NCBI RefSeq assembly: GCF_001021165.1
Contig: NZ_AZAY01000023.1
Span: forward strand, 62,001-126,000
Origin: Marinitoga sp. 1197
GTDB taxonomy: Bacteria > Thermotogota > Thermotogae > Petrotogales > Petrotogaceae
DNA: 64,000 nucleotides
Direction of reading: 5' to 3'
Positions within the stretch are counted from its first letter, which is position 1; the number at the start of each line of letters is the position of its first letter. This document shows positions 2,354 through 35,260 of this stretch, one piece after another. The position numbers were made by a program, and so were the translations under genes. The notes below the pieces were generated by a model. That model had not been told where the DNA came from. It saw only the letters and a list, made by a program, of their open reading frames with translations, and made no database searches.

Positions 2354-3028
2354 ATGGTAACATTAATAATTTTTATTTGGTTAATAATTTTGTCAGTCGT
2401 TTCTTTGATAAATTTATCGTTAATAATATCGTTATGGAGAAAATTTAATAATTTTTCTATTTCGATTGATTCATCAATTGAAGATCAATCTAATACTTTA
2501 TTGGCAAGGTTTCAAAAAATAACTTCTTCGAGGTTACGAGCACTTGATAATAAAATAGAAATATTGGATCAGTTGATAAAAGATGCAGATGAAGCTTATA
2601 TGAAATCATTTTCCATGCTTACGGATCTGGAAAAGAAGAATGATGAATTGATGAGAATTAAAGCTGTAGAAAGAATAAAAAAGGGAAAATCACATTTTTC
2701 GAGTTTGGATTCTAAAAAAGTAGAAATGCCAGATATTGAAGATAAAAAAAGAGTCAACGATGAATATTATAATCTTCAAAATACATTTAGAGAACCTTAT
2801 ACAGCACAAACAGATCAAATAGAAGAAAATATTGGAAACCAACAAAATGAAGAAATGTTGATAAAACAATTAGCCAAGAATAAGGAATTGAAAGAAAACT
2901 CATTAAAAGATAAAATTATAGAATATTATAATAGAGGAATGAGTATAAATGAAATAGCAAAAATGCTGGATAAAGGTTCTGGAGAGGTAAAATTAATAAT
3001 AGATTTATACAATAGAAATACGTTGTAA
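2354..3028 (+). CDS. Membrane-anchored coiled-coil protein with C-terminal helix-turn-helix-like segment
   Basis: This 224-residue protein has an N-terminal transmembrane helix (about residues 2-27). A long charged stretch follows with heptad-like pattern (about 40-110), then a low-complexity polar linker. The last ~45 residues contain YYNRGMSINEIAKMLDKGSG, which resembles a helix-turn-helix of the kind in DUF6115-type membrane proteins of Firmicutes and Thermotogae. No catalytic motif is visible. It is co-transcribed with the upstream gene (2-nt gap). A DNA-binding or protein-docking role for the C-terminus is inference only. Confidence 0.7.
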   Translation: MVTLIIFIWLIILSVVSLINLSLIISLWRKFNNFSISIDSSIEDQSNTLLARFQKITSSRLRALDNKIEILDQLIKDADEAYMKSFSMLTDLEKKNDELMRIKAVERIKKGKSHFSSLDSKKVEMPDIEDKKRVNDEYYNLQNTFREPYTAQTDQIEENIGNQQNEEMLIKQLAKNKELKENSLKDKIIEYYNRGMSINEIAKMLDKGSGEVKLIIDLYNRNTL

Positions 3029-3029
3029 T

Positions 3030-3088
3030 AAAAAGAAATAAAAACAAGTGACGCTTTGCGTCAGCACATAGTATTAATTATTTTAATA
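3030..3088. repeat. 59-nt intergenic repeat, copy A
   Basis: This segment is identical at 57 of 59 positions to 6876-6934. It contains the hairpin TGACGC-TTT-GCGTCA. Read on the minus strand, the hairpin is followed by CTTGTTTTTATTT, so it looks like an intrinsic terminator for minus-strand transcripts. Its first 25 nt also match the start of the adh terminator at 6965-6989. It directly abuts the 341-bp fold-back element. Confidence 0.8.
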
Positions 3089-3090
3089 GG

Positions 3091-3431
3091 ACGTCTAAAA
3101 AGTCTAAAATGAAATGAAGGCTCGAAGATTGTCCTTAACACACCTACGGTGGGTTATTGGATTAAAAATTGGATTTTGATAAAAAAACCTTTGAGCTATT
3201 GCTCTCTTACAGCGGGTAATTGGAAAAAATAATTTTTATTATATAATTATAAATCCTTTTCCCTTAGATTTTTTATACCTAAAAAATCTAAGCGTAAATG
3301 GAAGCCGTCAAAATTACATGGATGTAATGCCACGAAACAATACACGATGTATTGTTTGAGCGACGGCTGAGAATGAATAATTTTAAGGATTAGCAATCGA
3401 GCTGCCTCAGTGAATTTGACTTTTTAGACGT
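3091..3431. repeat. 341-bp fold-back element with 14-bp terminal inverted repeats
   Basis: The ends are the perfect inverted repeat ACGTCTAAAAAGTC (3091-3104) and GACTTTTTAGACGT (3418-3431). Further pairing continues inward: CTCGA 3121-3125 with TCGAG 3397-3401, and TCCTTAA 3132-3138 with TTAAGGA 3383-3389. Inside are local hairpins: CACC/GGTG 3141-3151, GAGC/GCTC 3193-3204, a 13-bp arm pair 3263-3275 and 3280-3292, and AGCCGTC 3303-3309 with GACGGCT 3362-3368. That last stem encloses two more hairpins (3313-3328 and 3335-3357). No ORF is present. It is either a MITE-like mobile element or the gene of a structured non-coding RNA. No clear target-site duplication is visible. Confidence 0.75.
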
Positions 3432-3774
3432 TGTATTGTAAAATTTAAATAATAGAGTTATAATTTTTTTGTGATTATATATTTTTCTTTTTTTTAAATT
3501 AATTTTGAAAATACTCTTAAAAATGAAATTCAAATACGTATAATTTTTATTTTTAATATTTTTATACCTTTAACTTGCTTTTCAAAGAAAAGCTACAAAA
3601 GGTCTTTAAAGTATCTTACGCCTGATTTCGTTTTTTATCTTTTTAATGATAATTTTTTGACAAAGTCAAAAATGACTTTTGTTTTCTTATTTTATATGAT
3701 TATTTTTGTGAAAAAATGAGTTTTTCTTATTTTTTGTGTAATTTTCGGGGATCAAGCCGACTATATCTCTAATT
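3432..3774. other. Gene-free AT-rich stretch with two hairpins
   Basis: No ORF with a ribosome binding site is seen. The stretch is mostly T-rich low-complexity DNA. It holds a hairpin GCTTTTC-AAA-GAAAAGC (3577-3593) and an imperfect hairpin CAAAGTCA/TGACTTTTG (3661-3681). The second is followed on the plus strand by a T-rich run and could be a weak intrinsic terminator. Confidence 0.5.
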
Positions 3775-4923
3775 CTATTTATGATATATCTCATCTAAAA
3801 TACCAATCTCTTTTGCTAATTTCAATGTGTTTTGAACGTATATCCCTCTTATTTGTATAAAATTTTCATATTTTTGTAGATGCTCTATCAAATTTTCTGT
3901 CGTTGCTGTTTCAAAATTTAGACTTTCTAATAATTTTTTTATTTCATTATATTTTTCTTGATAAAAGAAATATTTTTTATACATAATATCTATATTTTTT
4001 TTATAATAATATTCTTCTCTTTTTTCATTAAATTTTGGAGAGTTTAAACGATTTATTTCTTCTATATTTCCAAAACTAATATATATCGAAAGATTATAAT
4101 CATTACTTTTAAGTGAATAATCAAAAGATAAATTTATTCCTGATAATCTAAATAAACTTAGTCGAATACCATAATCATATGTTTCAAAATTTGTGTCTAA
4201 ATAGAAATTTACAACATTTGAAAAATTATTAATATACAACCTTTCAGCATTTAATTTATATTCCAATCTAGATATTTCAAGATTAAGAGATTCATTACTT
4301 ATATTTGTATTTAAATTTATCCCTTTTAATATCTCCAGAAACTCTGGATCTTCACATAAATTTAAATATTTTATAGAAGTATCTATTCCTATCATATTCT
4401 TTAAATCTAATTCCATTTCTTCTATTGTAATTTTTTTAAAATATATTCTATTTTCCAATTCATTTATTATTTGAACATACTCCTCAGAATTTTCTTTCTT
4501 TTTTAAAATATCATTAACTTTTAAATATAGCTCAAGTAATTCTTTCTCATTATAAATCATAGAATACAAATTTAAAATTCGATATATAATCTCATTTTCT
4601 TTTTGTCTTTTACTCAAAGAAATATATTCTTTTTCAAGATTATATTTAAACACTTTTGAATTTTCTATAATAATTGAAGAAAGGGAAATAGTTGTTGATA
4701 AATTAATAAAATTATTATTAAGAGTTAAAGATATTTTAGGTTGAATAACCTCTTTCAATAAATTAACTGTATTTAAATTATTTAATTTATTATCTACTAT
4801 TTTTATTTCATCTGAGTTATTTATTCCAGGCAAGACAATATTACCAAATACATATTCTTTTTCAAATCCAAATACAAAAGAGGTCAAAAAAATCATTATC
4901 AAAAAAGTTACTTTTTTCATCAT
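3775..4923 (-). CDS. TolC-like outer-membrane channel protein (putative)
   Basis: About 382 residues. It has a Sec signal peptide (MMKKVTFLIM..., cleavage near the end of FGFEK). The layout then resembles the outer-membrane efflux protein family: long charged helices (about 85-160 and 300-380) separated by short amphipathic beta-strand segments such as ISLTLNNNF and VVNFYLDTNF. No sequence-specific TolC motif is certain, so the call rests on architecture. ATG at 4923 (followed by a second ATG) has GGAG 6 nt upstream and is preferred over an upstream ATG at 4944, which lies inside the preceding gene. The gap to that gene is 1 nt, so the two are translationally linked. Confidence 0.55.
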   Translation of the reverse strand: MMKKVTFLIMIFLTSFVFGFEKEYVFGNIVLPGINNSDEIKIVDNKLNNLNTVNLLKEVIQPKISLTLNNNFINLSTTISLSSIIIENSKVFKYNLEKEYISLSKRQKENEIIYRILNLYSMIYNEKELLELYLKVNDILKKKENSEEYVQIINELENRIYFKKITIEEMELDLKNMIGIDTSIKYLNLCEDPEFLEILKGINLNTNISNESLNLEISRLEYKLNAERLYINNFSNVVNFYLDTNFETYDYGIRLSLFRLSGINLSFDYSLKSNDYNLSIYISFGNIEEINRLNSPKFNEKREEYYYKKNIDIMYKKYFFYQEKYNEIKKLLESLNFETATTENLIEHLQKYENFIQIRGIYVQNTLKLAKEIGILDEIYHK

Positions 4924-35040: not shown

Positions 35041-35125
35041 ATGATTTTTTATTACTATTGGCATATATATCAATAGAGATATCACTGTAATATACAAATA
35101 ATAAATCTAAGTATATGCCTTTGTT

Positions 35126-35246
35126 CTCCTCCCATCCAGACTTTAACTGTCGGCTCTGGAATTTCACCAGATCAACCTTAATAGCATTTATTAAGGCTCG
35201 CGGGCTTTCACCGCCGGTCGGGAATTTCACCCTGCCCCGGAGAATA
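35126..35246 (-). ncRNA. FMN riboswitch (RFN element)
   Basis: On the minus strand the conserved RFN blocks appear in order: CGGGGCAGGGTGAAATTCCC, ACCGGCGGTGAAAGCCCGCG, GATCTGGTGAAATTCCAGAG, CCGACAGTTAAAGTCTGGAT, then GGGAGGAG. The variable stem (around 35184-35196) is CTTAATA/TATTAAG-like. It binds FMN and turns off the riboflavin operon through the downstream terminator. Confidence 0.97.
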
Positions 35247-35260
35247 TTCACTTCTTATGG

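What the first reader, a model, noticed from the sequence alone, without database searches (positions are those of the whole stretch)
3091..3431. 341-bp fold-back element with perfect 14-bp terminal inverted repeats and nested hairpins
The ends pair perfectly and pairing continues inward in order, with at least six further hairpins and a multi-branch junction (AGCCGTC/GACGGCT enclosing two hairpins). This is far more base pairing than expected for AT-rich spacer DNA and no ORF is present. It abuts a minus-strand terminator-like repeat, so a structured minus-strand RNA ending at ~3030 is possible. Alternatively it is a MITE-like non-autonomous element. Either would be undescribed as far as I can tell.
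Basis: seen in the sequence. Interest (0 to 1): 0.6.

Follow-up and report, generated by a model that had tools for sequence, protein, structure and literature searches.

The report
Jumping DNA carrying structured RNA
The 349-bp fold-back is one copy of a small mobile DNA family, spread by an insertion-sequence transposase, whose interior encodes a conserved folded RNA (Rfam's TwoAYGGAY type) that probably binds the regulator CsrA; finding this RNA as a transposable, high-copy element in Marinitoga appears to be new.

Summary
It is an over-long copy of a dispersed family: about 40 close copies in the host genome, 94 matches with a covariance model, and tens in other Marinitoga genomes. Typical copies are about 200 bp. 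The ends match those of an insertion sequence with a DDE transposase in the same genus. Sister copies have 8-9 bp target-site duplications, and orthologous sites are empty in relatives. The interior is also a real RNA: 47 of 56 pairs show compensatory changes across 76 copies, and the + strand folds better in 76 of 76. Two apical hairpins keep a CA(N)GGA(U)G loop while their stems change. Sister copies score above Rfam's cut-off for TwoAYGGAY RNA (RF01731, function unknown, proposed in print to bind CsrA). A distant family of the class carries many copies of the same core. The window copy is atypical: about 157 bp of other repeat sequence replaces one helix arm, the second loop is CACGAU, there is no clear TSD, and it does not match RF01731 itself. 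Mobility and RNA conservation are shown; CsrA binding is inferred.

The parts
3087..3435 (+). whole element (long form, 349 bp)
   Evidence: ends set by comparison with 34 other complete copies in the host genome
3087..3104 (+). left terminal inverted repeat TAGGACGTCTAAAAAGTC
   Evidence: first 19 bp match the MITE consensus left end at 17/19; IS ends of the genus match that consensus at 14-18/19
3418..3435 (+). right terminal inverted repeat GACTTTTTAGACGTTGTA
   Evidence: perfect 14-bp pairing 3091-3104 with 3418-3431
3303..3309 (+). 5' strand of junction-closing helix AGCCGTC
   Evidence: helix 7 of A3: 94% of cells paired, 5 of 6 pairs with changes on both sides
3362..3368 (+). 3' strand of junction-closing helix GACGGCT
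   Evidence: as above
3313..3328 (+). apical hairpin 1, AUUACAUGGAUGUAAU, loop AUGGAU (AYGGAY / CsrA-type ANGGAX)
   Evidence: GGA kept in 75 of 76 copies while the stem changes
3335..3357 (+). apical hairpin 2, AAACAATACACGATGTATTGTTT; loop CACGAU, which lacks the GGA found in most relatives
   Evidence: GGA in 65 of 76 copies; this loop is shared by the sub-group of this copy
3138..3294 (+). insert of about 157 bp replacing the 5' arm of the middle helix; built of other dispersed repeats and hairpins
   Evidence: absent from the ~200-bp copies; pieces recur on their own elsewhere in the genome
3416..3444 (+). outward promoter-like site across the right end (TTGACT-17-TAAAAT)
   Evidence: consensus match only; no + strand gene follows here

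Best explanation
It is a non-autonomous transposable element (MITE) of Marinitoga that carries a conserved structured RNA of the TwoAYGGAY kind. Shown by sequence comparison: the family is dispersed with 8-9 bp duplications at AT-rich intergenic targets and shares its ends (TAGNNTGTCYAAAAAGTC) with an IS that has a DDE_Tnp_1 transposase; the plus strand encodes a long imperfect hairpin topped by a junction with two hairpins whose loops are held at CA(N)GGA(U)G. Inferred: that this IS transposase moved the copies in trans; that transcripts of some copies bind the CsrA dimer through the two loops and act as decoys in trans. The window copy is an elongated, probably decayed member with one good loop.
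For: Copies: about 40 by BLAST in the host genome, 94 by model R1; 34, 26, 41 and 8 in G002-G005. TSD: 16 of 34 copies have a perfect 8-mer (one-base shift allowed) against 0.8 expected. Empty orthologous sites for E22 and E15 in relatives G004-G006. Partner IS: PF01609 transposase beside a matching TIR. RNA: in A3, 92.9% of cells pair against 69.9% shuffled and 39-50% slid; 47 of 56 pairs with double changes. In the MAFFT alignment not fitted to a model, G-U 49 cells against A-C 9; plus strand more stable in 76 of 76. Loops: GGA in 75/76 and 65/76. RF01731 above the gathering score for sister copies and for L226 from another family, and in G000 and G002-G004. CsrA target: SELEX RUACARGGAUGU (PMC7652899); high-affinity hexaloop ANGGAX (PMC4005645); CsrA binding already proposed for TwoAYGGAY (PMC4333381). 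csrA is present in every genome with the element and in the own genome follows a FliW-like gene (by eye).
Against: No expression data. The window copy has no clear TSD and no RF01731 match, and its second loop lacks GGA. csrA is in 78 of 103 genomes of the class, so co-occurrence is weak evidence. The hairpin 1 stem (8 pairs in most copies) is longer than most SELEX hairpins (four pairs or fewer, PMC7652899). No intact autonomous IS was seen in the host assembly, only fragments, mostly at contig ends.
Confidence: 0.62

Rival explanations
1. A plain MITE: the fold is only a by-product of inverted repeats, kept complementary by template switching or repair of hairpin DNA, with no RNA function.
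For: TIRs, TSDs and dispersed copies; all copies are fold-backs.
Against: Palindrome repair does not explain loops held at CA(N)GGA(U)G, G-U over A-C 49:9 and the plus strand more stable in 76/76, mismatched G.A pairs kept on one strand, or the same core in another family of the class.
Confidence: 0.13
2. The structure works as single-stranded or cruciform DNA in transposition or replication.
For: The terminal helix varies between subfamilies as transposon ends would; G.A tandems are also stable in DNA (general knowledge).
Against: DDE elements with TIRs and duplications use duplex ends (general knowledge); G-U over A-C favours RNA; match to an RNA family with CsrA-type loops.
Confidence: 0.1
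3. A cis-acting leader or terminator controlling neighbour genes (Rfam types RF01731 as cis-reg), perhaps with outward hybrid promoters at the ends.
For: In 27 of 35 copies the nearest gene on the left reads away from the element, so the copy lies upstream of it; the right arm is T-rich in 73 of 76; outward promoter-like site.
Against: That left gene is antisense to the structured strand; the right-hand neighbour is sense in only 19 of 34; no terminator pattern was found in two copies tested. Gene calls were crude.
Confidence: 0.15

Closest known systems
TwoAYGGAY RNA, Rfam RF01731 (Weinberg et al. 2010, PMC2864571; CsrA link proposed in PMC4333381)
   Same: two apical hairpins with AYGGAY loops on a shared junction, a long outer stem, tandem G.A pairs; sister copies score above the gathering cut-off
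   Different: reported from Clostridiales, gamma-Proteobacteria and human gut (PMC2864571), not as a transposable element in the papers read; the window copy has a 157-bp insert and one altered loop and does not match the model
Bacterial MITEs (review PMC10969869; e.g. Correia, ERIC, QMITE)
   Same: TIRs, short TSDs, no ORF, AT-rich intergenic targets, partner IS, stable folded transcript
   Different: here the interior is a covarying RNA conserved across subfamilies whose ends differ; the review's text has no mention of CsrA, Thermotog- or compensatory change
CsrB/CsrC/RsmX/Y/Z CsrA decoy RNAs
   Same: GGA hairpin loops of the high-affinity form
   Different: two sites per RNA rather than many (CsrB has 22 GGA, PMC7652899); dispersed mobile copies; binding not tested
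IStrons (IS plus group I intron, PMC4227781)
   Same: a structured RNA joined to DNA-transposon ends
   Different: no intron or ribozyme family match here, no transposase inside

Membership tests
MITE (non-autonomous IS derivative) | terminal inverted repeats and no coding capacity | tested here: met
   perfect 14-bp TIR; no ORF of 80 aa or more; reading frames not conserved among copies
MITE (non-autonomous IS derivative) | target-site duplication | tested here: met
   met by the family: 16/34 perfect 8-mers vs 0.8 expected. The window copy has no clear TSD
MITE (non-autonomous IS derivative) | several dispersed copies, with empty orthologous sites | tested here: met
MITE (non-autonomous IS derivative) | partner transposase with the same ends | tested here: met
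   PF01609 protein next to TAGCCTGTCCAAAAAGTC in the same genome; matching ends in G005, G006
TwoAYGGAY RNA (RF01731) | score above the Rfam gathering cut-off (43 bits) | tested here: not met
   window copy itself: no match at gathering score or up to E 10. Relatives: 43.1-52.2 bits, including short own-genome copy L046 at 44.5 in sensitive mode
TwoAYGGAY RNA (RF01731) | two AYGGAY hairpin loops | tested here: inconclusive
   family: GGA in 75/76 and 65/76; window copy has AUGGAU in hairpin 1 but CACGAU in hairpin 2
CsrA-binding RNA | ANGGAX loop on a stem | tested here: met
   definition from PMC4005645
CsrA-binding RNA | csrA gene in the host | tested here: met
CsrA-binding RNA | measured binding and expression | not testable with these tools
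   needs EMSA and RNA-seq
named IS family (IS4/IS5/IS982) | NCBIfam score above cut-off | tested here: not met
   best 39.4 bits against 130, on partial proteins; only the Pfam DDE domain passes

The most novel reading that the evidence does not exclude
A mobile RNA decoy: a CsrA-binding RNA module kept and spread by DNA transposition, attached to different transposon ends in different subfamilies, so that CsrA control is altered by copy number. This would be a selfish or domesticated 'transposable sponge'.
Probability: 0.33. Interest if true: 0.82.

Novelty: new variant of a known kind. Interest (0 to 1): 0.57.

Why it matters
TwoAYGGAY RNA was described in 2010 and I found no established function for it. 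A genus with up to about 90 copies in one genome, its own csrA gene and recent transposition gives a place to test it. It would also be a case where a DNA transposon family is conserved for its RNA, with exchangeable ends, and would extend CsrA-binding RNAs beyond the Gammaproteobacteria.

Tried and rejected
Protein coding: the frames are interrupted differently in each copy. Other Rfam families at this place in the window: none. Plasmids: no match; viral contigs: no exact core match. Simple promoter signal at the element ends: no consistent -10 position in the flanks. A leader of the left-hand gene was considered, but the strand relation does not fit. Co-occurrence with csrA was tested and is too common in the class to discriminate.

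Full report
Observation. The fold-back is real. The 14-bp ends pair without error, and the junction and hairpins are as described. Folding is far better than shuffled DNA (z about -8 on either strand). The edges shared with sister copies are 3087 and 3435, giving 349 bp. The element sits between a plus-strand gene ending at 3028 and a minus-strand gene ending at 3775.

Host. The upstream gene product has its only genome contigs relative in Marinitoga lauensis, so the window is most likely from Marinitoga, a thermophile of the Thermotogota. The host assembly has 51 contigs.

A dispersed element. BLAST finds about 40 loci in the host genome. Most are about 200 bp; eight complete ones are 275-412 bp, this one among them. 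The flanks of sister copies carry 8-9 bp direct repeats, for example ATTATATAT, TTTAATACT and TTAATATAC. Of 34 copies, 16 have a perfect 8-mer when one base of shift is allowed; shuffled pairing gives 0.8. For copies E22 and E15 the orthologous gaps in related genomes lack the element. This copy has no convincing duplication, so it is old, or arose by recombination.

The partner. Transposase fragments with a Pfam DDE_Tnp_1 domain lie at contig ends C50 and C1 of the host, with relatives in G001, G003, G005 and G006. They are next to TAGNNTGTCYAAAAAGTC-like ends, which match the MITE left end at up to 18 of 19 bases. In a related order a full-length relative has two reading frames for the transposase and, by eye, a 9-bp duplication AATCTTAAT. 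The transposase fragments fall below every NCBIfam IS cut-off, so no IS family is named. That this enzyme moves the element is an inference from the shared ends.

A conserved RNA inside. RNAalifold on 27 short copies already showed compensatory changes. A covariance model found 94 copies in the host and tens more in G002-G004, in many subfamilies with different end sequences. On 76 aligned copies, 92.9% of pair cells are standard pairs. Re-dealing partners gives 69.9% and sliding gives 39-50%. 47 of 56 pairs show changes on both sides. This alignment is fitted to the model, which leans towards the structure, but the stems differ so widely that fitting alone is an unlikely cause. The MAFFT alignment, not fitted, has 49 G-U against 9 A-C cells, and the plus strand is the more stable in all 76 copies. 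Both facts point to a plus-strand RNA.

The loops. While stems change, both apical loops stay CA(N)GGA(U)G: GGA in 75 of 76 for hairpin 1 and 65 of 76 for hairpin 2, with N variable or missing. This is the CsrA target form: SELEX consensus RUACARGGAUGU (PMC7652899), best form a hexaloop ANGGAX directly on a stem (PMC4005645). Reading the sequences also shows tandem G.A pairs (CGAA/UGAG) in the outer stem, at the junction and, in some subfamilies, in hairpin 2.

Known family. Searched with sensitive settings, sister copies score above the gathering threshold of RF01731 TwoAYGGAY (43.1-52.2 bits; alignments; genome search). That family was found computationally in gut, Clostridiales and gamma-Proteobacteria (PMC2864571) and has been proposed as a CsrA-binding RNA on motif grounds in PMC4333381, which also notes its tandem G.A pairs. 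My CsrA reading was reached before seeing that paper, but from the same kind of evidence, so it is not independent proof. The window copy itself does not match RF01731, though it matches model R1 at 81.8 bits.

Breadth. Model R2 also finds the core in three genomes of another family of the class, with 23 matches in G046, keeping both GGA hairpins. No other genome of the class passes the threshold in that search, whose filters lose weak matches; an earlier search with R1 had four weak matches in G010. csrA is present in all ten genomes with the element, but also in 78 of 103 overall.

Placement. In 27 of 35 copies the nearest gene on the left reads away from the element, often starting 20-60 bp from it (crude gene calls). 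The structured strand is therefore usually not that gene's leader. The right-hand neighbour is in the sense direction in 19 of 34, near chance. This favours a trans role or none over a cis leader, without settling it. Many copies sit inside other copies.

The window copy. About 157 bp (3138-3294) made of other dispersed repeats replaces the 5' arm of the middle helix. The same kind of replacement occurs in another subfamily (first half of E30), so it is a recurrent long form. One loop is AUGGAU, the other CACGAU.

Judgement. MITE-type mobility of the family: about 0.93. Selected plus-strand RNA core related to TwoAYGGAY: about 0.88. CsrA binding: about 0.5. Decoy action in trans: about 0.35. 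It is a new variant of known kinds. The paper searches covered an open-access library only and found no report of this combination.

Noticed in passing
window 35120-35248 (-): FMN riboswitch, 127.5 bits.
   Followed up: no
window 3138-3294; own genome C12:1308, C39:723, C20:56805, C31:4678, C29:8914: A second dispersed repeat (CACACCTACGGTGGGTTATTGG..., ACACGCTACCGCGGGTATTGG) forms part of the long-form insert and also lies alone or next to other copies.
   Followed up: partly
own genome C48:185177, C1:30144, C23:178058; window 3264-3291: The hairpin TTAGATTTTTTAT..TAAAAAATCTAA recurs on its own in the genome.
   Followed up: no
L165, L169, L177, L186-L193 flanks: Copies are often inserted inside other copies, some apparently replacing the apex of the host copy without a clear duplication.
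   Followed up: partly
L234:424-587, L235:1-166: G046 has a second repeat type with GGA hairpins (GGCACAGGACGTGCC, AACAGGATGTT) beside the first.
   Followed up: no
L206:513-1734: In G004 a 328-aa protein that looks like two fused FliW-like units lies directly before csrA; judged by eye from the repeated sequence.
   Followed up: no
35 complete copies in the host genome: Strong orientation bias: left end toward the start of a divergent gene in 27 of 35; the cause is unexplained.
   Followed up: partly
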